Shown here: positions 7,948 to 54,134 of the stretch, in pieces
How the letters are laid out: each line of letters opens with the position of its first letter
How positions within the stretch are numbered: the first letter of the stretch is position 1
Source: Fischerella sp. JS2
GTDB taxonomy: Bacteria > Cyanobacteriota > Cyanobacteriia > Cyanobacteriales > Nostocaceae
NCBI RefSeq assembly: GCF_032393985.1
Contig: NZ_CP135918.1
Span: forward strand, 3,844,001 to 3,908,000
Direction of reading: 5' to 3'
Length of the DNA stretch: 64,000 nt
The notes under the pieces: generated by a model
Told to the model about the DNA's origin: nothing
The model's input: the letters and a program-made list of their open reading frames with translations, nothing else
The model's database searches: none
Made by a program: the position numbers and the translations under genes

Positions 7948-8703
7948 GGCGTTGCATAATAGCGGTATGAATTGAGGTCAATTAATCATGGAATGTCCAC
8001 GCTGTGGATCTTGTCATAACCGTAAGAATGGAAAGAAAAGAGGTAAACAGAATCACATTTGCTGTGATTGTGGTCGTCAATTCATTGATGTCTATAAACC
8101 ACCCAGGGGCTACTCGGATGAAATCAAACAAGAATGCCTAAAAATGTACGTCAATGGTATGGGATTTCGTGGAATTGAAAGGGTGAAAAACGTTCATCAT
8201 ACTACCATTATTCATTGGGTTAAACGAGTGGGTACACAATTGGCGGATACACCAAATTCAAAGGAAATTCCGCAGGTGGGAGAACTAGATGAATTAGAAA
8301 CATTTATTGGTTCAAAAAAAATAAAATCTGGTTGTGGACGGCGGTAAATCACTTTACTCAAGGTATTCTTGCTTGGGTTTTAGGTGATCGTAGTTCGACT
8401 ACTTTCCAACAGTTATGGAACATTGTCCAGTGTTGGCAGAGTTATTTTTACGTCACAGATGGATACCCTGTTTACCCTTGTTTTGTTCCTGATGGTGACC
8501 AAATTGTGAGTAAGACCTACATGACACGAGTCGAAAATGAAAACACAAGGCTTAGACATTATTTGGCTCGTCTTCATCGTAAAACTTTATGTTATTCCAA
8601 AACCGAGGAAATGCTGAGATACTCTGTTCGATTGTTATTGCACTACCTCAAATATCGTTCTGTTCCCTTACCTGCCTAAAACATACCTTTATTCAGCAAC
8701 GCC
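7948..8703 (+). mobile_element. IS1-family insertion sequence, copy 1 (756 bp)
   Basis: The element is complete. Its imperfect terminal inverted repeats start GGCGTTGC and carry GGTATG at positions 17-22; 18 of the 22 bases match between the ends. It is flanked by an 8-bp target duplication, GAAGTATG, at 7940-7947 and 8704-8711. The length is close to the 768 bp of IS1. It lies between genes and is identical, as far as I can read, to the copy at 46621-47376. Confidence 0.95.
7988..8679 (+). CDS. IS1-family transposase, two overlapping frames joined by -1 frameshift
   Basis: The first frame (7988-8347, 119 residues, InsA-like) begins with a zinc-finger-like C-x2-C...C-x2-C motif (CPRCGSC, CCDCGRQF) and a helix-turn-helix region. 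The second frame (8332-8679) continues the InsB-like catalytic domain. An A8 run at 8313-8321, with ribosomes slipping back by one base, would give KKNKIWLWTAVNHF and a fused protein of about 230 residues. Catalytic D-D-E candidates are the Asp in GELDELETFIG, the Asp in YVTDGYP and the Glu in TRVENENTRL. Frameshifting at an A-run is the known expression mode of IS1. Confidence 0.9.
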
Positions 8704-41551: not shown

Positions 41552-42502
41552 GTGAAAATTTTACAACAATTAATTAAAGAAATTTTAAAAATTCCACCCG
41601 CAGAAACTAATTTTGAACGGCGTGGATTTTATAAAAATAACAGTCAAATCGAAAAACATTTAGAAAAAGTAGGATATACATTTCTCCTCGGCTATCATGC
41701 AGCTATTAAGGATGAAGGTTTAAAAGCCTTAGAGTTTGAACTCAATCAGGTGGAATTAGAACTTCGTGGATTTGCTTTTGAAGGAGCAGGGATGGGTTTA
41801 GCTTTATTAGATATAATAACTCCCTGGAATAAAAAGCGGCTGCAATTATATTTAGAAGGCTTTGGCTCATCTCATATATACATGGCACATGTCGGTATTG
41901 GCTGGGTTTTAGCTAGGTTACATCGAAGGATTGAAAAAACTTTGGAGCAATTAGATCCTCTATTAGGTTGGTTGGCGATCGATGGATATGGTTTTCATGA
42001 GGGTTACTTTCATTGGCCTCAATCTATAGAAAAACAACAGGTTCCCAAAGCCATTTATGGGTATGCCTGTCGAGTTTTCGATCAAGGATTAGGTAGAAGT
42101 CTCTGGTTTGTGAAAGGTGCTGATATTGATCAAATCTTAGAAACTATTACTAACTTCTCCAAAGAGCGCCATGCAGATCTTTGGAGTGGTGTAGGTCTTG
42201 CCTGTGCTTATGCTGGTGGTGTAGACCTTTGGACGATAAAATCTTTACGAGAAGCAGCAAAATCTTATCAGCCTCAATTAGCCCAAGGAGCAGCCTTTGC
42301 TGCTAAGACACGGCAGAGAGCTAGAAACCCAGCAAAGCATACAGAGCTTGCTTGTGAAATACTGTGCGGCTTGTCTGCTGCTAATGCTGCGGAAATTACT
42401 GATGCTGCTCTAGCGCAGATATTACCAAACGGTAGCGAACCAATGTATGAGGTTTGGCGACGCAGAATTCAGGCTAAATTTACCCAGGAGATCCTAGTAT
42501 GA
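41552..42502 (+). CDS. unbL: UnbL: DUF1702 protein of the enediyne warhead cassette
   Basis: The product is 316 residues from a GTG at 41552 with AAAAAGGA upstream; a TTG at 41507 is possible. DUF1702 motifs include NFERRGFY, FAFEGAGMGLALLD, HVGIGWVLARLH, DPLLGWLAIDGYGFHEGYF, FDQGLGRSLWFVKG and GAAFAAKTRQRA. DUF1702 (UnbL) is conserved beside enediyne polyketide synthases in actinomycetes and is needed for warhead maturation, though its reaction is unknown. It overlaps the next gene by 4 bp (ATGA), so the two are translationally coupled. Confidence 0.88.
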   Translation: MKILQQLIKEILKIPPAETNFERRGFYKNNSQIEKHLEKVGYTFLLGYHAAIKDEGLKALEFELNQVELELRGFAFEGAGMGLALLDIITPWNKKRLQLYLEGFGSSHIYMAHVGIGWVLARLHRRIEKTLEQLDPLLGWLAIDGYGFHEGYFHWPQSIEKQQVPKAIYGYACRVFDQGLGRSLWFVKGADIDQILETITNFSKERHADLWSGVGLACAYAGGVDLWTIKSLREAAKSYQPQLAQGAAFAAKTRQRARNPAKHTELACEILCGLSAANAAEITDAALAQILPNGSEPMYEVWRRRIQAKFTQEILV

Positions 42503-44475
42503 AGTTCTGGATAGCTTTCATACAGCGCCATGCCAAGCGCATAGTGGCGAGTTCTTTAATTTTTGTATTATTCTGGCTGGTTCGATTACCAGAGTTATCT
42601 GATGTAGAACGCAACGCACTCACTAGCCACTTTAATTTTGCACGATCGCCCTTACCAGAGTTAGTAGGTTACTCATCTAATACTAAACGAGCAGTTCATC
42701 CTAGTTTAAACCGTCATTCAGCTTGGACTTCTTCTGTAGGTGCATCCGTAGCATTAAACGATCTGGATAAAGACGGATTATCTAATGATGTTTGCTACGT
42801 AGACACAAGAATTAATCAGATTATTATTGCACCAGTTCCGGGAACACCCAACCGTTATCAGCCTTTTACTCTAGAGCCAATCTCACTGCCTTACGATCGC
42901 ACAACAATGGCTCCTATGGGTTGTTTGCCTGGAGATTTAAATGAGGACGGGTTGATTGATATCCTGGCCTATTACTGGGGACGAACTCCGATCGCATATC
43001 TGCAAAAACAAACAGTAGGTAAAAACCAATTGCAGTTATCTAGCGATCGCTACGTAGAACGCGAACTTGTGCCAAACGGTGAGCGATGGTTTACCAATGC
43101 TGCTACCCTTGCCGATTTAGATGGTGATGGACATACTGACCTAATCATTGGTAATTACCACCAAGATGAGGCGCGAATTTTAGATGTTAGTGCCTCTGGG
43201 CGCGAACAAATGCAACATTCCATGAGTAGAGCTAAGAACGGTGGGAGCAGTCGATTTTTTCTGTGGACAGGAGCAACAACAGGAAAAGAGCCAACAGTGC
43301 AGTTTCAAGAAGCTAAAGATGTTCTCGATGAGTCAATCAAACATAGTTGGACTTTAGCTATTGCAGCAGCAGATCTTGATGGGGATTTACTACCTGAAGT
43401 TTACTTCGCAAATGATTTTGGCCCCGATCGCCTATTGTACAATCGCTCCCAACCAGGAGAGTTGCGTTTTGCCCTCCTAGAAGGAAAAAGAGGCCTCACT
43501 ACTCCCAGATCGAAAGTTCTTGGTCGTGACAGTTTCAAAGGAATGGGCGTAGATTTTGGCGACATCAATCATGATGGGTTACTCGATATTTATGTCAGTA
43601 ACATTGCTTCTGAATATGCTCTAGAAGAGAGTCACTTTCTGTTTACCAGCACGGGCAATATTGAGTCTATGCAGCAAGGTATCGCTCCCTATATTGATCG
43701 CAGCGAACCAATGGGTGTATCCCGTAGTGGCTGGGGTTGGGAATCAAAGTTTGGTGATTTTGATAATGATGGAACTCTCGAAGCATTGCAAGCAACAGGC
43801 TTTGTCAAAGGAACAGTCAATCGCTGGCCAGAGTTGCACGAGCTAGCAATGGGAAACGATGACCTTTTAAGAGATTCTCGCTTTTGGCCTCGTTTGCAAT
43901 CTGGTGATGATTTAAGCGGCCATCAACACAATCCATTTTTTGTCATGGCACAAAATGGTCGTTACTATGACTTGGCTCAAGACTTAGGAATTGACACGAC
44001 AGAAGTTAGTCGAGGTATTGCGACAGCCGATGTAGATGGTGATGGAGATTTGGATTTTGCCACAGCTAATCAGTGGGAAACTTCTTATTTCTACAAAAAC
44101 AAGAGCAATAAAGCTGGAGCATTTTTGGGTCTTCACCTTCTACGCGAACTTGGTTCAACAACATTAACTGATACAGTTGTGCGTTCTGGTCATCCAGGAA
44201 TGGAGGTAATTGGACAACCTGCGATCGGTGCGACTGCAACCGTTCATCTAGCGGATGGTCGCCAGTTAATTGCTCAGGTAGATGGTGGAAATGGTCATTC
44301 TGGCGATCGCAGTCCCGACCTACATTTTGGATTGGGTCAGTTATCGCCGAAAACTCAAATCCAAGTCGATTTGCGCTGGCGGGATCTGAATGGACGAATT
44401 CGTGAAAAATCCCTGCACTTAGAACCTGGTTGGCATACCGTGTTGCTAGGTGGATTATCCAAAGAGGAGGCTTAA
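42499..44475 (+). CDS. unbV: UnbV: FG-GAP/VCBS-repeat and ASPIC/UnbV domain protein
   Basis: This 658-residue protein has an N-terminal hydrophobic segment (IVASSLIFVLFWLVRLP), then at least seven calcium-loop-like FG-GAP/VCBS repeats (DLDKDGLSND, DLNEDGLID, DLDGDGHTD, DINHDGLLD, DFDNDGTLE, DVDGDGDLD). It ends with the ASPIC/UnbV domain (GATATVHLADGRQLIAQVDG, then GDRSPDLHFGLG). The Pfam domain takes its name from this enediyne-associated protein. It is likely exported or membrane-anchored on the outer face. Its role in warhead biosynthesis is unknown. Its stop overlaps the next start (TAATG). Confidence 0.9.
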   Translation: MKFWIAFIQRHAKRIVASSLIFVLFWLVRLPELSDVERNALTSHFNFARSPLPELVGYSSNTKRAVHPSLNRHSAWTSSVGASVALNDLDKDGLSNDVCYVDTRINQIIIAPVPGTPNRYQPFTLEPISLPYDRTTMAPMGCLPGDLNEDGLIDILAYYWGRTPIAYLQKQTVGKNQLQLSSDRYVERELVPNGERWFTNAATLADLDGDGHTDLIIGNYHQDEARILDVSASGREQMQHSMSRAKNGGSSRFFLWTGATTGKEPTVQFQEAKDVLDESIKHSWTLAIAAADLDGDLLPEVYFANDFGPDRLLYNRSQPGELRFALLEGKRGLTTPRSKVLGRDSFKGMGVDFGDINHDGLLDIYVSNIASEYALEESHFLFTSTGNIESMQQGIAPYIDRSEPMGVSRSGWGWESKFGDFDNDGTLEALQATGFVKGTVNRWPELHELAMGNDDLLRDSRFWPRLQSGDDLSGHQHNPFFVMAQNGRYYDLAQDLGIDTTEVSRGIATADVDGDGDLDFATANQWETSYFYKNKSNKAGAFLGLHLLRELGSTTLTDTVVRSGHPGMEVIGQPAIGATATVHLADGRQLIAQVDGGNGHSGDRSPDLHFGLGQLSPKTQIQVDLRWRDLNGRIREKSLHLEPGWHTVLLGGLSKEEA

Positions 44476-45398
44476 TGACGACAATAGTTAGTTGGAGTAA
44501 AGCAGATCGTTTAGGGGGATTGCGGCGCTTTGCGATCGCTATTACACTCCTCAACTTATTAGGGCATTCCTTTCTAGGGTTTGAGCAATCCTGGGCGCAA
44601 CCTCTGGTGGCGTTAGCAACTACATACAGCGTGGAAATTTTGCTAGAAGTAGTTGAAGCTGTAGTACAGAAGCGCATTCCGCATTTTATTGGTGGAATAC
44701 AACAATTTATTGATTTTCTGCTGCCCGCACATATAACAGGGTTAGCTGTGGCAATGCTACTTTATGCTAATGAGCAGTTATTCCCTATCATCTTTGCATC
44801 TGCGGTGGCGATCGCTTCCAAAGCCATGTTTCACACTGCTGTCGGTAAAAGTAATCGCCATTTTTTCAACCCCTCCAACTTTGGGATTACCGTAACTCTG
44901 CTGCTCTTTCCTTGGGTGGGAATTGCACCTCCCTATCAATTCACAGAGAACCTGAGTGGTATGGGAGATTGGTTGTTACCAGGGCTGATCGTGATTACAG
45001 GAACGTTTCTCAATGCCCGTTTTACTCGTCGATTACCTTTGATTGCGGCCTGGTTAATTGGGTTTGTCATTCAAGCATTGCTGAGAAGCTTCATTTTTGG
45101 TACACCGCTTGTTCCCGCATTAGTACCGATGACAGGTGTGGCATTTATTCTCTTTACCTTTTACATGGTGACAGACCCTGGTACAACACCCGTTGACCCT
45201 AGAGAGCAAATTTTATTTGGAGCCGGAGTTGCTGCAACCTATGGAGTTTTGATGGTTTCCCATATTGTCTTTGGACTTTTCTTTGCTTTAACTATTGTCT
45301 GTGCAGTTCGCGGGATTCTTCTGCAAGTGCAGACAATGATCAAACTGGAAGAACCAGCAAACATGGTTCCGGCATCAGCCACAGCAGTGGAGGTATAA
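44475..45398 (+). CDS. unbU: UnbU: RnfD/NqrB-like membrane protein of the enediyne cassette
   Basis: The product is 307 residues from the ATG at 44475 (GAGGAGG upstream). About eight or more hydrophobic segments and motifs SNRHFFNPSNFGITVTLLLF and MVTDPGTTPVDPREQILFG belong to the RnfD/NqrB family of electron-transport subunits, in the branch annotated UnbU next to enediyne synthases. The FNPSN and TDPGT loops are those that in RnfD/NqrB surround the flavin, suggesting an electron-transfer role in the membrane. The stop is 3 nt before pksE. Confidence 0.87.
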   Translation: MTTIVSWSKADRLGGLRRFAIAITLLNLLGHSFLGFEQSWAQPLVALATTYSVEILLEVVEAVVQKRIPHFIGGIQQFIDFLLPAHITGLAVAMLLYANEQLFPIIFASAVAIASKAMFHTAVGKSNRHFFNPSNFGITVTLLLFPWVGIAPPYQFTENLSGMGDWLLPGLIVITGTFLNARFTRRLPLIAAWLIGFVIQALLRSFIFGTPLVPALVPMTGVAFILFTFYMVTDPGTTPVDPREQILFGAGVAATYGVLMVSHIVFGLFFALTIVCAVRGILLQVQTMIKLEEPANMVPASATAVEV

Positions 45399-46620
45399 AA
45401 TATGAAGCCTGCGATCGCGATCGTTGGAATGGCCTGTCAATATCCAGATGCTCGCTCACCCATTGAGCTTTGGGAAAATGTACTAGCGCAGCGTCGAGCG
45501 TTTCGGCGTATACCATCAGAGCGTTTATCATTAGAAGATTATTGGTCTGATGACCGCAACGCAGTTGACAGCACTTATACAACCCAAGCAGCTCTAATTG
45601 AGGGCTATGAATTCGATCGCCTTCACTTTCGAGTCGCAGGAAATACATTTCGTTCGGCTGATTTTGTCCATTGGTTAGCCTTGGATGTGGCAACTCAAGC
45701 CTTAAATGATGCTGATTTTTTAAACAATAAAGGTTTACCCCATGAGCGAACGGGAGTGCTAGTTGGTAACACGCTTACAGGAGAATTCTCTCGCGCCAAC
45801 ACATTAAGATTGCGCTGGCCGTATGTACATCGGGTTGTAGAAACCACATTAGCAAAAGCAGATTTTTCACCTCAGCAGCGTTCTGCATTTTTACAAGAAT
45901 TAGAAGCAACCTACAAAGCTCCCTTTCCCGAAATAACTGAAGAAACTTTAGCAGGTAACCTTTCTAACACGATTGCCGGACGCATCTGTAATCATTACGA
46001 CCTCAAAGGTGGTGGTTATACCGTTGATGGAGCCTGTAGTTCTTCATTGCTGGCGGTTGCCAATGCTTGTACAGCCTTGATTGTGGGCGACTTGGATGTA
46101 GCCATTGTCGGTGGTATCGATCTGAGCCTCGATCCATTTGAACTAATTGGATTTGCCAAGACAGGCGCATTAGCATCTGATGAGATGCGCGTGTATGATG
46201 CTGGCTCTAATGGTTTCTGGCCAGGTGAAGGATGTGGCTTTGTAGTGCTAATGCGTTATGAGGATGCAGTAGCTCAACATCATCAAGTTTACGCCGTAAT
46301 TCGCGGTTGGGGAATTTCGTCGGACGGTAAAGGCGGAATTACACGTCCTGAAGTAGAAGGGCAAACTATAGGATTAAACCGTGCTTATGAGCGTGCTGGT
46401 TTTGATGCGGCAACAGTTGCTTATTTTGAAGGGCATGGCACAGGTACGAAAGTTGGTGATGCCACAGAACTTCAAGTTCTCTCGCAAATTCTCCAAAAGG
46501 CAGCCATTGATACTCCTTTGGCAGTCATTAGCTCGATCAAAGCAAATATTGGTCATACGAAAGCAGCCGCAGGGATAGCTGGCTTAATTAAAGCCACTAT
46601 GGCACTCCATACACAAATTT

Positions 46621-47376
46621 GGCGTTGCATAATAGCGGTATGAATTGAGGTCAATTAATCATGGAATGTCCACGCTGTGGATCTTGTCATAACCGTAAGA
46701 ATGGAAAGAAAAGAGGTAAACAGAATCACATTTGCTGTGATTGTGGTCGTCAATTCATTGATGTCTATAAACCACCCAGGGGCTACTCGGATGAAATCAA
46801 ACAAGAATGCCTAAAAATGTACGTCAATGGTATGGGATTTCGTGGAATTGAAAGGGTGAAAAACGTTCATCATACTACCATTATTCATTGGGTTAAACGA
46901 GTGGGTACACAATTGGCGGATACACCAAATTCAAAGGAAATTCCGCAGGTGGGAGAACTAGATGAATTAGAAACATTTATTGGTTCAAAAAAAATAAAAT
47001 CTGGTTGTGGACGGCGGTAAATCACTTTACTCAAGGTATTCTTGCTTGGGTTTTAGGTGATCGTAGTTCGACTACTTTCCAACAGTTATGGAACATTGTC
47101 CAGTGTTGGCAGAGTTATTTTTACGTCACAGATGGATACCCTGTTTACCCTTGTTTTGTTCCTGATGGTGACCAAATTGTGAGTAAGACCTACATGACAC
47201 GAGTCGAAAATGAAAACACAAGGCTTAGACATTATTTGGCTCGTCTTCATCGTAAAACTTTATGTTATTCCAAAACCGAGGAAATGCTGAGATACTCTGT
47301 TCGATTGTTATTGCACTACCTCAAATATCGTTCTGTTCCCTTACCTGCCTAAAACATACCTTTATTCAGCAACGCC
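46621..47376 (+). mobile_element. IS1-family insertion sequence, copy 2, inside pksE
   Basis: It is identical in length and, as read, in sequence to copy 1 (7948-8703). The 8-bp target duplication ACAAATTT lies at 46613-46620 and 47377-47384. The insertion is in the pksE coding strand, in the same direction as the gene. Confidence 0.95.
46661..47352 (+). CDS. IS1-family transposase (copy 2), frameshifted pair
   Basis: The frames 46661-47020 and 47005-47352 encode the same 119- and 115-residue peptides as copy 1, with the same A8 slippage site near 46986-46994. The transposase is intact, so the element may still be mobile. Confidence 0.9.
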
Positions 47377-48885
47377 ACAAATTTTACCTCCCATGACGGG
47401 CTGTACGCAGGTTCATCCACAACTAGCACAAGAGACTTCGATACGGGTACTTGATCGCGGTGAACTTTGGCCTACTAATTCTCAATTACGCGCTGGAGTC
47501 AGTGCAATGGGTTTTGGTGGAATTAATACCCATGTTGTACTAGAAGGAATTAGCACAAGGCGGCAAGTACTTAGTAGTCAGGAACACAGGTTATTATCTT
47601 CTGCTCAAGACGCTGAACTGATGTTGGTAGCTGCTGAAGATGCAAATCATTTGCTTCTACAAGTAGAGCATTTGTTAACTTTAGCACCTAAGTTATCTCG
47701 TTCAGAGTTAACAGATTTAGCTGCTCAGTTAGAAAAAAATCTAACTGATCGTACAGTGCGGGCAGCAATTATCACATCAACTCCCCAAGAACTAACAACC
47801 CAATTAGAGATTTTGCGATCGTGGTTGCAAGAAGAATTCACTGTTCGGCTCGACAGTCGTATGGGAGTGTTTTTAGGAGTAACCATAGATAAACCGCAAA
47901 TCGGATTTTTGTTTCCAGGGCAAGCCTCTCCCACTTACTTCAATGGTGGAGCATGGGAACGACGATTTGAGTGTGTACACGACCTTTATCAGTGGGCAAA
48001 TCTTCCACAAAATAGCGATCGCAAAGCCACAGCAGTGGCACAACCTGCGATCGTCACTGCTGCAATGGCAGGATTAAGAGTCTTAAACAAATTTGGCATC
48101 GCAGCCAGTGTCAGCGTTGGACACAGCTTAGGAGAACTTTCAGCACTGCATTGGGCTGGTGCTTTTGATGAAGCTGAGTTATTACGGATTGCGACTGTGC
48201 GTGGGCAGACAATGACCAAGGTAGGTAATACCCTTGGTGCAATGGCGAGTATTCAGGCATCGCAACCTGTAGTGGAGAATTTAATTAACGGCGATCGCGT
48301 TGTCATTGCGGGGTTGAACTCGCCTCAACAGACAGTCATTTCCGGTGAAGTTACTGGTGTCACCACAGTTGTGAATCGAGCGCAAGCAATGGGATTAAAA
48401 GCTGTTACCTTACCTGTATCCCATGCTTTCCACTCACCTTTGGTAGCAGATGCAGCCCAACCATTCGCAGACTATTTAGGGCAAGAAGCATTTCAAACAT
48501 TACAGCGAACTGTGGTTTCTACGGTGACGGGGAGAGCGATTGATTACACTGAAGATTTGCGATCGCTTCTGCATCGGCAAATCACTGCCACCGTTAGATT
48601 TATTGAGGCAGTTACCAAGGCTGCGGCAGGAGTTAACCTGTTTATCGAAGTTGGGCCGGGTCGCGTTTTATCAGGATTAGTTACTGAATTTGTGGACGTG
48701 CCAATAGTATCATTGGATGCTAGCGGTTCTTCTTTAAAAGGCTTACTACAGGCAGTTGGTGCGGCGTTTGTCGTTGGCACACCAGTTAAACACAAAGAAC
48801 TGTTTAGCGATCGCTTTACCCGACCATTTGATTTGAACTGGCAACCGCAATTCTTTGTCAATCCTTGTGAGTTAGCACCAAGGCT

Positions 48886-49051
48886 GCAAGAGGCAGAGGG
48901 CAGAAGGGGTAAGTCACAAGGGGATTCAACCCCTCCTGACTTGGAGTCACTGAACTCTCGTTCAGTGGAGTTCTTACACTCTTGCTCCTCCTGGTCGCAG
49001 CCGCGAACAGAGGGCAGAAGGAATACTGCCCTCTGCCCTCTGCCCTCTACC
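48886..49051. repeat. In-frame repeat block in the AT-ACP linker of pksE
   Basis: AGGCAGAGGGCAGAAGG at the left and a CAGAGGGCAG...CTGCCCTCTGCC palindrome at the right, with about three CTGCCCT heptamers at 49027-49049, enclose a segment rich in short palindromes (ACTGAACTC/TCAGTGGAGTT). These are typical intergenic repeats, but here the frame stays open, adding about 55 low-complexity residues (EGRRGKSQGDS, SWSQPRTEGRR) between AT and ACP. Confidence 0.7.
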
Positions 49052-52000
49052 TTTGTTGATCGATCGCCATTAGAATTAGTTTGCCAGCTTGTCGCACAAC
49101 GGGCAGAACTTCCTGTCAGTGCGATCGCAGATCATCATCGATTGTTGAGCGATCTTCATCTCAATTCAATCACAGTGAGCCAAATTGTAGTCGAAGCAGC
49201 GCGATCGCTTAATATCGCCCCACCGATTGCTCCAATTAGTTATGCCGATGCCACGGTTGCTGAAGTCGCTCAGGCATTAGAAGAACTCTTACGCCTCGGC
49301 AGTTCGCAAGCTGACAGTGTTGCAGAACGCTTACCTTCAGGTGTGGATGCTTGGGTGCGTACATTTACAATTGAACTAGTGGAGCGTTCCTTGCCTCGTC
49401 GTCAAGTTGCTAACTTGCCAGGATCTTGGAAAGTAATTACAACCTTAGATCATCCTTTAGCAGAACCTTTGCAGCAAGCATTTCAGGACTGTGAGGGTAG
49501 TGGAGTAGTCGTCTGTCTTCCTGCTGTTGAGCTTGGTACAGCATCTTTACAGGAACTTCCTCATATTGAGCTATTGCTAGAAGCCTATAGTGCAGTGTTG
49601 GCACAAGAGAATGCTCGGTTTGTGCTGGTTCAACAAAGTGGAGGTGGAGCAGGATTTGCTCGAACCCTTTATCTAGAAGCGCCACAGGTGACAACTTGTG
49701 TAGTTAATGTGCCAATGGATCGTTCCCAAGCGGCCGAATGGGTGCTGGCAGAAGCAAGAGCAGCAATAGGTTACTCTGAGGCACACTATGATGAGTTGGG
49801 AATAAGATACGAGCCAGTACTCAAAGTATTACCCCAGTTAGAAACATCTGCTGTTCCCCTGAAAGCAGATGATGTGTTGCTAGTCACAGGTGGTGGCAAA
49901 GGAATTACCGCAGAATGTGCGTTTGCCTTAGCTAAAGAAACGGGAGTGCGATTGGTGTTGTTGGGGCGATCGCAACCAGAGCGAGATCCTGAACTGTTGA
50001 CCAATCTCGACCGCATGACTGCTGCGGGAATTGAATTTCGTTACATTGCCACCGATATTACTGATGCAGTTGCAGTGAAATCGGCTATCCACACAGCAGA
50101 AGCAGCATTCGGTTCCATTTCCGCCATTCTGCACGGTGCAGCCCGCAACGTTCCGCAACTGTTGAGTAACCTGGAACAACAAGATTTTCTTCACACCCTT
50201 GCTCCTAAAGTTCAGGGTTTGCAGAATGTCCTGGCCGCAGTCAATCCAGAGGATTTGCGACTGTTGATTGGCTTTGGTTCGATCATTGCTCGCACAGGCT
50301 TACCCGGTGAGGCGGACTATGCCCTAGCAAATGAATGGCTAGTACATCTGATTCAACGCTGGCAAGCAGATCATCCTCATTGTCGCTGCTTGGCTATCGA
50401 GTGGTCGATCTGGTCTGAAGTGGGAATGGGTTCCCGTTTGGGCAGTATAGATACCCTGTTGCGGCAAGGGATTACTCCGATTCCGACAGATCAAGGGATT
50501 GCCATGCTACGTCACCTACTAACTCAGCCATTCGCTGGTTGTGCGATCGCAACTGGGCGTTTCGGTGGACTCCCGACAATCCAGCTTGAGCAAACAGAAC
50601 TGCAATTACTGCGTTTTCTAGAACAGCCACGAGTCTACTATCCTGGTGTAGAACTTGTAGTTGATGCCACCCTATCCACAGGAACCGACCTCTATCTGAA
50701 TGACCATCAGTTTCAGGGAGAACGGGTGTTTCCCGCCGTCTTGGGGTTAGAGGCAATGGCACAGGTAGCTATGGCATTGGCAAGCACAGAGGAACTACCC
50801 GTATTCGAGCAGGTAAAGTTTGAGCGTCCTGTTGTTGTTGCCGAATCCACACCTTTGAAAATTCAGATTGCTGCCTTGATGTATGAGTCGGGACACATTG
50901 AAGTTACACTCAGAAGTGAGCAGACTGGATTTGCAGTGAATCACTTCCGAGCTACCTGTTGGATTGGCACACAGGGATCAGAGATTGGTCAACTATCCAC
51001 CCATGCGCTCAATTTGGCATCTGTTGCCGATTTTGTTTCGCTGAATCCACAGCGCGACCTTTATGGTGAAATACTGTTCCATCAAGGCCGATTTCGGCGA
51101 TTGTCTAGCTATCGCCAACTGAGAGCGAAAGAGTGTCTGGCGGAAATAACACCAGATCCAGGCAGTAATTGGTTTAGCTCTTACTTACCTGCACAACTAA
51201 TTTTAGGCGATCCAGCAGTCCGAGATGCCGCAGTTCATGCCTTGCAGGCGTGCATTCCCCAGGCAACAATTTTGCCGATCGCTGTTGAGCGATTGGAATT
51301 GAGTAGTCTTCCAAGTACAGAACCACAGTTTGTCTATGCCAAAGAGCGATCGCACGATGGCAACACCTTTATTTATGACCTAGAAATTTGCGATCGCTCA
51401 GGTCAAATTCTAGAACGCTGGCAGGGATTGCAGCTAAAAGTGATTCAGTCATCACTAGCGAAAAATCCTTGGGTCGAATCATTGCTCGGCCCCTATCTGG
51501 AACGGCGAATTCAAGAACGCTTTCCTTCAGCAGATATTGCTATTATAGTTGATTGCAACCCTAATATAGAACGCCGAGTACACAGCGATCGCGTCATTCA
51601 ACAAGCTATTGGGTCAAAAGTACCAATCTGGCGGCGATTCGATGGCAAACCAGAAGTAGTAGGTTGCCAGCAAGTTTCTGTGTCTCATACCGAAGCTTTG
51701 ACTATAGCTATTGTCGGCAAAGGTGCAATTGGCTGTGATGTTGAACCCGTAGTTTCCCGTCCTGTCTCAATCTGGCAAGACTTGCTGGGGATAGAGAGAT
51801 TCAAACTAGCAGAAATTATTCATCAGGAAACGGGAGAAGACCAGAATACTGCTGCGACTCGTATTTGGACAGCAATTGAGTGTCTCAAGAAGGCTGGGGC
51901 TATAGAGAATGCCCCCCTGATCCTCGCTAGTTTAACCGCTAGTAATGATGAAGTTTTGCTCCAATCAGGAGATTTGTCGATCTCCACCTTTGATATATCT

Positions 52001-52085
52001 GTGCAGTCCTTTGCCCACAAACTAGTCTTTTCTGTGCTTCTAAACAAACGATACTTCTGAATTAAACCTACAGGAGGTACTTGCG

Positions 52086-52673
52086 ATGACGATTACCAAA
52101 AATTCCCTCAGAAACTCCAAATTCCCAATATTCCAATCTCTGATCCATGCCCTAAATGGGCGTTGGCATAAACGAGCCATGCAGATTTTTATGATTGTTA
52201 TCCTTGCTCATTTGTCCGAACACTTGTTTCAGGGATTTCAGCTTTGGGTACTGCATTGGCCTAGACCCCAATGTCTTGGCGTACTCGGACTATTCTATCC
52301 CTCTTTAGTGCATTCAGAGTGGTTGCACTACGGTCACGCTCTGTTTATGCTTTTGGGTTTAGCATTGTTGCGTCCAGCAATTACAATTACACAGGCGCTT
52401 TTCTGGTGGAATATTGCCTTTGCTATCCAATTCTGGCATCACATTGAACACGCCTTATTATTAGGTCAGTCACTGATCCATAAGAACCTATATCAATTTG
52501 CTGGGCCAGTGAGTATTGCACAGATCATCGCTCAATACTTTAGCGATCGCCCTTTTACTGGTCAACCCTGGCTGCCGCGAATCGAACTGCATCTTTTCTA
52601 CAACCTGATCGTGCTGATACCGATGCTGATCGCCCTGCGCTACCATCGGTTTCCTCCAGCGAGTGATGTTTAA
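52086..52673 (+). CDS. Histidine-rich membrane protein inside the enediyne cassette, unknown
   Basis: This 195-residue protein starts 25 nt after pksE with a strong AGGAGG site, so it belongs to the operon. About four hydrophobic segments are visible (MQIFMIVILAHL, HALFMLLGLALL, ALFWWNIAFAIQFW, NLIVLIPMLIAL). Histidines cluster near them: HLSEHLFQ, HSEWLHYGHA and WHHIEHALL. Two HxxEH motifs plus HYGH recall membrane di-iron or heme proteins, but I cannot match a family and this reading is speculative. It is not one of the five canonical cassette genes. A candidate role in oxidation or desaturation of the polyene is a hypothesis only. Confidence 0.75.
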   Translation: MTITKNSLRNSKFPIFQSLIHALNGRWHKRAMQIFMIVILAHLSEHLFQGFQLWVLHWPRPQCLGVLGLFYPSLVHSEWLHYGHALFMLLGLALLRPAITITQALFWWNIAFAIQFWHHIEHALLLGQSLIHKNLYQFAGPVSIAQIIAQYFSDRPFTGQPWLPRIELHLFYNLIVLIPMLIALRYHRFPPASDV

Positions 52674-52760
52674 TACCAATTAACCCAAATGAAACAACAG
52701 ATTTAAACCAGGAAAGTCTTGCTCCATCTAAGTTTATTAATTAAAAATTCCAAATTGGTA
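52674..52760. mobile_element. Possible IS630-derived miniature element (MITE), 87 bp
   Basis: The segment starts TACCAATT and ends AATTGGTA, the same 8-base ends (with TA) as the IS630 element at 31113-32253. It has no coding capacity. It lies directly at the stop codon of the membrane protein gene, before tebC. Confidence 0.45.
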
Positions 52761-52821
52761 TAAGTCTGTTGGTGACCATTTATGCATAGGCTACAACAAA
52801 CTTGATGTTTAAGGAGGGTAG

Positions 52822-53280
52822 ATGAAAGCATATGAATATATACATATTGTGGGTTTTGAAGAAACTAACCTCGTCGGAAATGTTTACTACGTAAACCACC
52901 TGAAATGGCAGGGTCGTTGTCGTGAGATGTTTCTTAAAGATTATGCCCCTACAATTTTGGCAGAACTATCCCAGGGTCTAGCTTTGGCTACTGTTCGGGT
53001 GTCTTGTGAGTATTTTGTCGAACTTTATGCCTTCGACACTATCGCCATCCGGATGCGTATGAAAGAACTTACCCAAAATCGAATCACAATGCTCTTTGAG
53101 TACTGGAGACTTACAAGTGGTAACGAAGAATTGATCGCTCGTGGTGAGCAGCAAATAGCCTGCATGAAACGAGAAGGAGAGCGAATGCTGCCAACACCTG
53201 TGCCAGCAGCACTGAGGGAAGCTTTACAGCCCTATGCGGAACCCAGGATGGGTAGTGGTAAGCAGGGGGTGCTGGGGTAG
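52822..53280 (+). CDS. tebC: TebC: enediyne hotdog-fold thioesterase (E10/E7 type)
   Basis: The protein is 152 residues, with an AGGAGGG site 4 nt before the ATG. The segment GFEETNLVGNVYYVNHLKW continuing QGRCREMFL is diagnostic for the CalE7/SgcE10/DynE7 thioesterases, which release the polyene chain from PksE. The remaining hotdog fold is complete (VSCEYFVELYAFDTIAIRMR, ITMLFEYW). The C-terminus runs on into GSGKQGVLG, read from a repeat that follows, so the natural end may have been extended. In actinomycetes PksE plus this enzyme yields a C15 heptaene. Confidence 0.93.
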   Translation: MKAYEYIHIVGFEETNLVGNVYYVNHLKWQGRCREMFLKDYAPTILAELSQGLALATVRVSCEYFVELYAFDTIAIRMRMKELTQNRITMLFEYWRLTSGNEELIARGEQQIACMKREGERMLPTPVPAALREALQPYAEPRMGSGKQGVLG

Positions 53281-53594: not shown

Positions 53595-54134
53595 ATGGTA
53601 TTTACTGGTCTTTTGCCGTCGATCGGTATGGAGATCCCGTGCAGTTGCTACGCGGTCAACGTACCCCTACAAGTGAATGTCCTCGGACTTGTGACGCTGG
53701 ACTTCAAGGGCGGGATCACCGTGCGAGTAGAGGAAAACCTCTCACAAGGTCTCGGCGGTGTCAAGTTAAGAGTAATTGGCCACGAGGTTTCGGCTGATAG
53801 TCCGGTACTTGGCAGAGTTACCATCAGTCAGGCCGATGCCGAGGTAACACCCCTGAGTCTGCTCGAACTCATCAAGCAGCTCCCGCCCACCTTCCGGCAA
53901 ACAATGTATCTGGATTTCACTGTTACCATCGAAAAGCCACCCGGAGGCGGCCCGCCCTTAGTGCTGTCAAACACTAAGACAGCCAGGCTGATCAACGACA
54001 ACCTGACGCAGTTTCCGCCGCAGGGTGCTGTTTATCGGCTGCAAGAACCCGTTGACCTTGCGCCTGTCGGTGCGCCGACTGAGGTCGTTGCCCAGCTGCT
54101 ACAGTTCCCCGTTACGGTTACGCACAACCCGTAA
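53595..54134 (+). CDS. Unknown beta-rich protein, 179 aa, GC-richer than neighbours
   Basis: ATG at 53595 has GGAGG 6 nt upstream. The sequence alternates short hydrophobic strands (VPLQVNVLGLVTLDFKGG, VKLRVIGHEVS, MYLDFTVTIEKP) with turns. It contains Cys residues only near the start (PCSCYAV) and no signal peptide or membrane helix. I recognise no family. Codon use is GC-richer than in the flanking genes, a hint of horizontal acquisition. It follows the enediyne-type cassette on the same strand, 314 bp after tebC, but a link (for example binding or resistance) is unproven. Confidence 0.65.
   Translation: MVFTGLLPSIGMEIPCSCYAVNVPLQVNVLGLVTLDFKGGITVRVEENLSQGLGGVKLRVIGHEVSADSPVLGRVTISQADAEVTPLSLLELIKQLPPTFRQTMYLDFTVTIEKPPGGGPPLVLSNTKTARLINDNLTQFPPQGAVYRLQEPVDLAPVGAPTEVVAQLLQFPVTVTHNP

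What the first reader, a model, noticed from the sequence alone, without database searches (positions are those of the whole stretch)
41552..53280. A compact enediyne warhead cassette in a cyanobacterium
Seen: six consecutive + strand genes with overlaps or short gaps encode DUF1702 (UnbL), UnbV/ASPIC, an RnfD-like UnbU, a KS-AT-ACP-KR-DH-PPTase synthase and a CalE7-type thioesterase. Known: unbL-unbV-unbU-pksE-tebC is the conserved core for enediyne warheads, the DNA-cleaving antitumour natural products of actinomycetes. Inference: this organism had the core for an enediyne or a related polyene. No tailoring P450, sugar or apoprotein genes are visible here, so the product may be simpler or the rest may lie elsewhere.
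Basis: partly seen in the sequence, partly recalled or inferred. Interest (0 to 1): 0.88.

Follow-up and report, generated by a model that had tools for sequence, protein, structure and literature searches.

The report
Broken enediyne-type cassette in cyanobacterium
A cyanobacterium carries the standard gene set that starts making enediynes (DNA-cutting antitumour compounds), but a jumping gene has recently cut its main enzyme in two; an extra, unnamed gene in the set turns out to travel with enediyne genes in many other bacteria.

Summary
The genes are real and correctly named: DUF1702/UnbL, UnbV, UnbU, an enediyne-type PKS and a CalE7/SgcE10-type thioesterase. But pksE is not intact: a 756-bp IS1-family element with an 8-bp target duplication lies inside the KS domain; at least 40 near-identical copies sit in this 7.02-Mb genome. 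Both pieces stay open and constrained, so the break looks recent. Mojavia pulchra has the same six genes with an open PksE. No E2 in the cassette and no E8 or E11 match in the genome were found, so a finished cyclic enediyne is not supported. Enediyne-type KSs in cyanobacteria are already in print (PMC4247773, PMC10308959). The least expected result is the sixth gene, orf195, histidine-rich, probably a membrane protein, without a Pfam or NCBIfam match: in 250 genomes of a Micromonospora's family it is in 89 of the 91 with UnbU and 1 of the 159 without.

The parts
41552..42502 (+). unbL, DUF1702 protein (the ORF is open from TTG 41507)
   Evidence: PF08012 E 3.7e-117; 88.5% to Mojavia pulchra, whose ORF starts at window residue 16; outside the actinobacterial E2 clade
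42499..44475 (+). unbV, FG-GAP/ASPIC protein with one N-terminal hydrophobic segment
   Evidence: PF13517, PF01839, PF07593; hydropathy; 91.3% to Mojavia
44475..45398 (+). unbU, RnfD/NqrB-like membrane protein (open frame from 44430)
   Evidence: PF03116; 48-56% to C-1027, S. clavuligerus and Sinorhizobium UnbU; GAGGAGG before ATG 44475
45402..46620 (+). pksE, N piece: KS with Cys, His, His; its ORF runs on into the IS and stops at 46643
   Evidence: PF00109/PF02801; aligns to Mojavia PksE residues 1-405 of 1953, 93%; motifs
46613..46620 (.). target site duplication, left copy (8 bp)
   Evidence: read
46621..47376 (+). IS1-family insertion sequence inside the KS domain, tnp in two overlapping ORFs 46661-47020 and 47005-47352
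   Evidence: NF033558 IS1 transposase, E 1.1e-35 and 3.9e-31; PF03400; 40 copies listed in the genome
47377..47384 (.). target site duplication, right copy (8 bp)
   Evidence: read
47393..52060 (+). pksE, C piece: end of KS (GFGG motif), AT, ACP, KR, DH, PPTase motif; its first ATG has no ribosome-binding-like site
   Evidence: Pfam; DynE8 AT; aligns to Mojavia PksE 410-1953, 86.7%; motifs; upstream sequence
52086..52673 (+). orf195: histidine-rich, probably membrane protein, unnamed family, sixth cassette gene
   Evidence: no Pfam or NCBIfam match for this protein, best PDB match E 0.57; 8 invariant His in 21 sequences; homologue beside the C-1027 cassette; co-occurrence
52822..53280 (+). thioesterase of the E10/TebC type
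   Evidence: PF13279; SgcE10 4i4j E 3.9e-49, CalE7, DynE7
53595..54134 (+). orf179, neighbour shared with Mojavia; membership unsure
   Evidence: 84.9% to Mojavia; no family; found in 1 of the other 23 loci clustered

Best explanation
This is a stand-alone enediyne-PKS cassette of a cyanobacterial lineage of such cassettes, recently switched off by an IS1 insertion. Shown: gene content, order, phylogeny, the insertion, and open relatives. Inferred from the family: intact PksE, primed by its own PPTase domain, iteratively condenses malonyl units with KR and DH acting each round and no enoyl reduction, giving an ACP-bound linear polyene; the thioesterase releases it; UnbL, UnbU and UnbV, probably with orf195, act on the polyene at the membrane, a step whose chemistry is not established. 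Without E2 and E6-E11-type genes near by, the likely ancestral product is a linear polyene or polyyne rather than a finished cyclic enediyne. In this strain the KS is cut after its catalytic residues but before its GFGG motif, so the synthase should be dead and the rest is idle, not yet decayed.
For: Families and solved relatives. KS in an all-cyanobacterial 18-row clade, SH-aLRT 95, next to Mojavia at 100, apart from own paralogues L014 and L016; the C piece groups the same way. IS ends, duplication, copy number. No stops inside the genes or pieces; dN/dS 0.11-0.25 against Mojavia; the C piece's 0.25 lies within 0.21-0.34 for four other pairs of PksEs. First ATG of the C piece lacks a ribosome-binding-like site; pksE, orf195, the thioesterase and UnbU have one. 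The ten neighbours scanned include cytochrome oxidase, WD40, protease and transport genes and no obvious tailoring set. PksE plus thioesterase giving a heptaene: PMC5408033 and PMC8725005, passages read.
Against: No expression or metabolite data. Most of the KS, with all three catalytic residues, is still encoded, so residual function is not formally excluded. The E6-E11 comparison rests on C-1027, a 9-membered system; 10-membered clusters use other genes that were not searched for. In the whole genome only E8, E9 and E11 were looked for; E9 has weak oxidoreductase matches.
Confidence: 0.85

Rival explanations
1. The cassette, when intact, does make a true cyclic enediyne warhead, with maturation enzymes encoded elsewhere in the genome or supplied by unrelated enzymes.
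For: The same five genes are the only ones common to the 10 compared enediyne clusters (PMC5181780, passages read); weak GMC oxidoreductase matches exist elsewhere (best E 1.8e-9).
Against: No E8 or E11 match in the complete genome (no positive-control genome in those calls;'s table E8 rings in 6 and E11 in 1 of the 79 loci); the cassette's single DUF1702 is outside the E2 clade; no E6, E7, E8, E9 or E11 homologue in the stretches held of the 16 cyanobacterial loci.
Confidence: 0.2
2. The two PksE pieces are both translated and still work together as a split synthase.
For: Both pieces are open and show purifying selection; the catalytic Cys-His-His lie in the N piece.
Against: The cut lies inside the KS fold: the conserved GFGG motif is in the C piece, whose first ATG lacks a ribosome-binding-like site. 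In the 21 other loci that hold PksE it is a single open frame as far as the locus reaches (two end at a contig edge inside or soon after the KS-AT part). A recent insertion explains the same selection signal.
Confidence: 0.05
3. The synthase is a heterocyst-glycolipid or PUFA-type synthase and the neighbours are coincidental.
For: NCBIfam's best model for the KS piece is PfaA, but far below its cut-off, 257.7 of 1010.1 bits.
Against: KS 66% identical to SgcE against 52-55% to the genome's own glycolipid/PUFA-like KSs, and separated from them in the tree; thioesterase and AT match enediyne enzymes. No named PfaA or HglE reference was in the tree; the paralogues stand for them.
Confidence: 0.01
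4. The cassette was recently acquired from an actinomycete.
For: Patchy in the family: strong UnbU in 8 of 217 genomes; the two other genomes marked same genus there have only weak matches.
Against: Cyanobacterial PksEs (Gloeobacterales apart) form one clade outside the actinobacterial one; the closest cassettes are cyanobacterial; actinobacterial UnbLs form other branches. Transfer or loss within cyanobacteria remains likely.
Confidence: 0.03

Closest known systems
Enediyne PKS cassette E3/E4/E5/E/E10 of actinomycetes (10 clusters compared in PMC5181780, passages read)
   Same: All five gene families; order unbL-unbV-unbU-pksE as in C-1027; TE of the SgcE10/CalE7 type
   Different: Stands alone; one DUF1702 instead of two in C-1027; pksE interrupted by IS1; orf195 between pksE and TE
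Five-gene cassette on a Streptomyces clavuligerus plasmid (NZ_CP065235)
   Same: Same five genes, same order, no E6-E11 homologue in the stretch held
   Different: No orf195 on that plasmid record; PksE in one piece; actinobacterial clade
Mojavia pulchra JT2-VF2 cassette (L026)
   Same: Six genes in the same order, 87-93% protein identity, orf179 also shared
   Different: PksE is one open frame of 1953 aa, no IS
Cyanobacterial enediyne-type PKSs in print (PMC4247773, PMC10308959, PMC6520454; passages read)
   Same: Enediyne-type KS in cyanobacteria, no known product
   Different: The passages seen do not describe an inactivated copy or orf195
RerA/RerB polyene synthase of Rhodococcus (PMC11563203, passages read)
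   Same: Iterative KS-AT-ACP-KR-DH with enediyne-like KS making linear polyenes
   Different: Two ACPs, PPTase and TE on a second protein; the passages seen name no UnbL/UnbV/UnbU

Membership tests
Enediyne PKS cassette (E3/E4/E5/E/E10) | all five gene families clustered | tested here: met
Enediyne PKS cassette (E3/E4/E5/E/E10) | KS groups with PksE, not HglE/PUFA | tested here: met
   (own paralogues as the contrast); C piece
Enediyne PKS cassette (E3/E4/E5/E/E10) | PksE domain set KS-AT-ACP-KR-DH-PPTase with catalytic residues | tested here: met
   spread over two pieces; DH by Pfam only, PPTase by one motif only
Enediyne PKS cassette (E3/E4/E5/E/E10) | one uninterrupted pksE gene | tested here: not met
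   IS1 at 46621-47376
Enediyne PKS cassette (E3/E4/E5/E/E10) | makes a polyene or enediyne | not testable with these tools
   needs metabolite work
9-membered enediyne cluster | E2 present (rule in PMC5181780, section 8 read) | tested here: not met
   the cassette's UnbL is outside the 16-row E2 clade. Which C-1027 DUF1702 is E2 is taken from its position; the rule was made on actinomycetes
10-membered enediyne cluster | R3 gene present (same rule) | not tested
   no R3 reference sequence was at hand
Heterocyst glycolipid / PUFA synthase | KS in that clade | tested here: not met
   with the genome's own paralogues L014 and L016 standing for the clade
IS1 insertion sequence | IS1 transposase in two overlapping frames, inverted ends, 8-9 bp duplication | tested here: met
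   that these marks are usual for IS1 is recalled

The most novel reading that the evidence does not exclude
orf195 is an unrecognised sixth core component of enediyne biosynthesis in Actinomycetota, Cyanobacteriota and Chloroflexota: a small integral membrane enzyme with a di-metal centre built from its invariant histidines, which, taking electrons through RnfD-like UnbU, helps turn the PksE polyene into the acetylenic intermediate. Stand-alone six-gene cyanobacterial cassettes would then be minimal makers of a linear polyyne.
Probability: 0.3. Interest if true: 0.85.

Novelty: new member of a known kind. Interest (0 to 1): 0.55.

Why it matters
Enediyne-type synthases in cyanobacteria are known from sequence, but no product had been reported by 2023 (PMC10308959, passages read). 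This locus shows how such a cassette dies, by one recent insertion in a strain with many copies of one IS, and points to close relatives with open pksE in which chemistry can be sought. The larger point is orf195: PMC8725005 (passages read) calls the steps to the enediyne core mostly unknown, and a histidine-rich protein that occurs in 89 of 91 UnbU-bearing genomes of one family and 1 of 159 others, sometimes more than 500 kb from unbU, is a concrete, removable candidate for one of them.

Tried and rejected
HglE/PUFA identity: rejected by the KS tree. A missed second pksE: none in the genome; next best matches are 34-36% paralogues. Relaxed selection on the C piece: dN/dS 0.25 is not above four other pairs, 0.21-0.34. 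orf195 as a marker of the 9-membered class: rejected, it occurs with and without E2. orf195 as universal: rejected, 0 of 26 cassette genomes outside three phyla; 7 of 35 actinobacterial, 10 of 16 cyanobacterial and 1 of 2 Chloroflexota ones lack it (several are metagenome-assembled, so some absences may be gaps). The 240-500 aa genes inside other cyanobacterial cassettes as tailoring enzymes: none of the three members scanned hit an enzyme family except one weak metalloprotease match; a PEP-CTERM motif passed its cut-off in one and fell below it in another. PHROGs for orf195 and its look-alikes: nothing. Promoter and terminator scan: no more than shuffles. IS in plasmid records: no match. Literature searches for a common linear diyne intermediate found nothing; I recall such work from no call. 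Structure prediction of orf195 and UnbL could not be run, so the metal-site idea is untested.
Full report
What is there. The window is bases 3844001-3908000 of a complete one-contig genome of 7.02 Mb. On the + strand stand unbL (DUF1702, 41552-42502), unbV (42499-44475), unbU (44475-45398), two pieces of pksE (ORFs 45402-46643 and 47393-52060), orf195 (52086-52673) and a thioesterase (52822-53280). The thioesterase's best solved relatives are SgcE10, CalE7 and, further down, DynE7; the AT region matches DynE8 at E 3e-57; UnbU is 48-56% identical to those of C-1027, S. clavuligerus and a Sinorhizobium plasmid.

The break. Between the pksE pieces lies an IS1-family element, 46621-47376, with two overlapping transposase frames, inverted ends and an 8-bp direct duplication at its flanks. 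A 749-base query from it finds 40 copies over its full length, 32 of them (this one included) with the top score; 40 of 69 candidates were scored, so 40 is a lower bound. The N piece aligns to residues 1-405 and the C piece to 410-1953 of the single open PksE of Mojavia pulchra. The catalytic Cys and two His are in the N piece, the conserved GFGG motif of the KS in the C piece. The C piece's first ATG has no ribosome-binding-like sequence, unlike pksE itself, orf195, the thioesterase and UnbU. The pieces were never joined.

Recent loss. Against Mojavia the genes differ by dS 0.25-0.47 with dN/dS 0.11-0.25 and no stops. For pksE the values are 0.13 (N) and 0.25 (C); four other pairs of PksEs give 0.07-0.13 and 0.21-0.34. 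There is no sign of decay after the insertion. Another lineage has gone further: in G097 a locus (L141) holds four fragments of a pksE and a cut-down orf195 (one search counts a stop in it).

Phylogeny. In a tree of 79 KS rows the window KS pairs with Mojavia (SH-aLRT 100) inside 18 cyanobacterial rows (95; two pairs of rows are identical, probably the same genomes twice), apart from the genome's own glycolipid- and PUFA-like KSs and from modular KSs (quick method, no bootstrap, no named HglE or PfaA reference). The two Gloeobacterales-type rows (L057, L061) branch elsewhere. The C piece gives the same placing in a 68-row FastTree, where letter make-up is uneven and a meeting of long branches is flagged. 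The actinobacterial PksEs form their own clade (26 rows at 99, 27 rows at 100), but for L067 in both.

Distribution. The UnbU profile found 460 relatives in the 84,980-genome collection, of which I worked with the 79 loci kept. They span Cyanobacteriota, Actinomycetota, Pseudomonadota, Planctomycetota, Acidobacteriota, Bacteroidota, Chloroflexota and others. 48 of 79 hold all five families in the stretch fetched, 45 in the window's order. Within the window's family strong UnbU (E under 1e-100) is in 8 of 217 genomes (that call's tally of 178 counts distant RnfD-like proteins). DUF1702 is over its cut-off in 7 of 386 phylum genomes. Cyanobacterial enediyne-type KSs are in print: Calteau 2014 (PMC4247773), Singh 2023 (PMC10308959) and a sponge symbiont paper (PMC6520454), passages read; Singh states that such compounds had not been reported from these taxa.

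What it would make. Published passages say PksE with its thioesterase gives a heptaene (PMC5408033; PMC8725005). PMC5181780 (section 8) predicts 9-membered enediynes by E2 and 10-membered ones by R3. In a 92-row DUF1702 tree the E2 clade (16 rows, 100) is actinobacterial and the cassette's UnbL is outside it; the genome's two other DUF1702 genes stand at a second PKS locus, and the one of them in the tree is outside E2 too. E8 and E11 of C-1027 have no match in the genome and E9 only weak oxidoreductase matches (no positive-control genome in those calls). R3 and the genes of 10-membered systems were not searched for. Among ten neighbours scanned are cytochrome oxidase genes, a WD40 protein and a papain-type protease. 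I therefore favour a linear polyene or polyyne as the ancestral product; this is inference.

orf195. The window's protein has no Pfam, NCBIfam or PHROG match and no PDB match better than E 0.57; some relatives have weak matches to DUF families, best E 0.0019. In 21 sequences from Cyanobacteriota and Actinomycetota, eight histidines (42, 46, 81, 118, 119, 122, 169, 187) and glutamates 45, 78, 121, 167 are invariant. Simple hydropathy gives three hydrophobic segments (31-49, 83-101, 166-184), so the membrane location is likely but not shown. A homologue sits beside the C-1027 cassette, annotated 'hypothetical protein'. In 250 genomes of the family of a Micromonospora genome (G571; taken to be Micromonosporaceae), orf195 is in 90 and UnbU in 91; by comparing the two lists, 89 hold both, G749 and G792 UnbU only, G674 orf195 only, 158 neither (Fisher p 1.4e-64, which ignores relatedness; only the best 12 and 9 first-look candidates per genome were scored). 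In 38 same-contig pairs that I picked by hand out of the 89, the distance is up to 10 kb in 14, 10-60 kb in 19 and over 500 kb in 5. Over the 79 cassette loci and their genomes orf195 is in 35: 28 of 35 actinobacterial, 6 of 16 cyanobacterial, 1 of 2 Chloroflexota, 0 of 26 others (20 seen in the loci; 4 of 12 genomes; 11 of 47). Among the 8 UnbU-bearing genomes of the window's family it is in 6. It is therefore frequent but not universal, which speaks for a coupled function and against an indispensable one. Weak relatives stand in three cyanobacterial genomes that showed no DUF1702, in gene islands of another kind. I found no paper on it in searches of an open-licence library; the 2016 genome-neighbourhood paper is not held, so it may be described there.

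Verdict. A genuine enediyne-core cassette, a new member of a known kind, recently inactivated; its unnamed sixth gene is the part worth pursuing.

Noticed in passing
window 7951-8699 and G000:5320823-5321571: Further copies of the same IS1 element; the second lies between two PKS ORFs of the genome's glycolipid-type locus (L016), so that pathway may be affected too.
   Followed up: partly
L014 6273-13325 to L015 3423 (G000 about 5.22-5.24 Mb): A second PKS cluster in the same genome: 2350-aa KS-AT-ACP-KR-DH synthase, two FAD-halogenase-like genes, aldehyde dehydrogenase, RPE65-type oxygenase and tandem DUF1702 genes; the one in the tree falls inside the cyanobacterial cassette UnbL group (support 85). 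Tandem DUF1702 also in G191, G278, G382.
   Followed up: partly
L141 5312-7918: Decayed pksE fragments plus a shortened orf195 in a cyanobacterium of another family: an independent loss of the cassette.
   Followed up: partly
L027, L031, L032, L034, L037, L041, L042: One to four members of a family of 238-495 aa proteins sit between unbV and unbU in these cyanobacterial cassettes; of three family members scanned one has a clear and one a weak PEP-CTERM motif. Possibly secreted binding proteins.
   Followed up: partly
L142 4703-5191, L143 9634-10098, L144 9563-9976: Short orf195-like proteins in islands of small genes without any PKS match, alike in three cyanobacteria.
   Followed up: no
L023 9147-9575: A 142-aa 'hypothetical protein' gene next to orf195 in the C-1027 region has relatives beside orf195 in nine of the 79 loci.
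   Followed up: no
Plasmids NZ_CP021805 and NZ_MT039191: UnbU homologues on a Sinorhizobium meliloti psymA plasmid (all five cassette families) and on a Serratia proteamaculans plasmid (listing only).
   Followed up: partly
L017 13875-14930: A lone DUF1702 gene in G143, grouping with Crocosphaera cassette UnbL, with no other cassette match within the fetched stretch.
   Followed up: no
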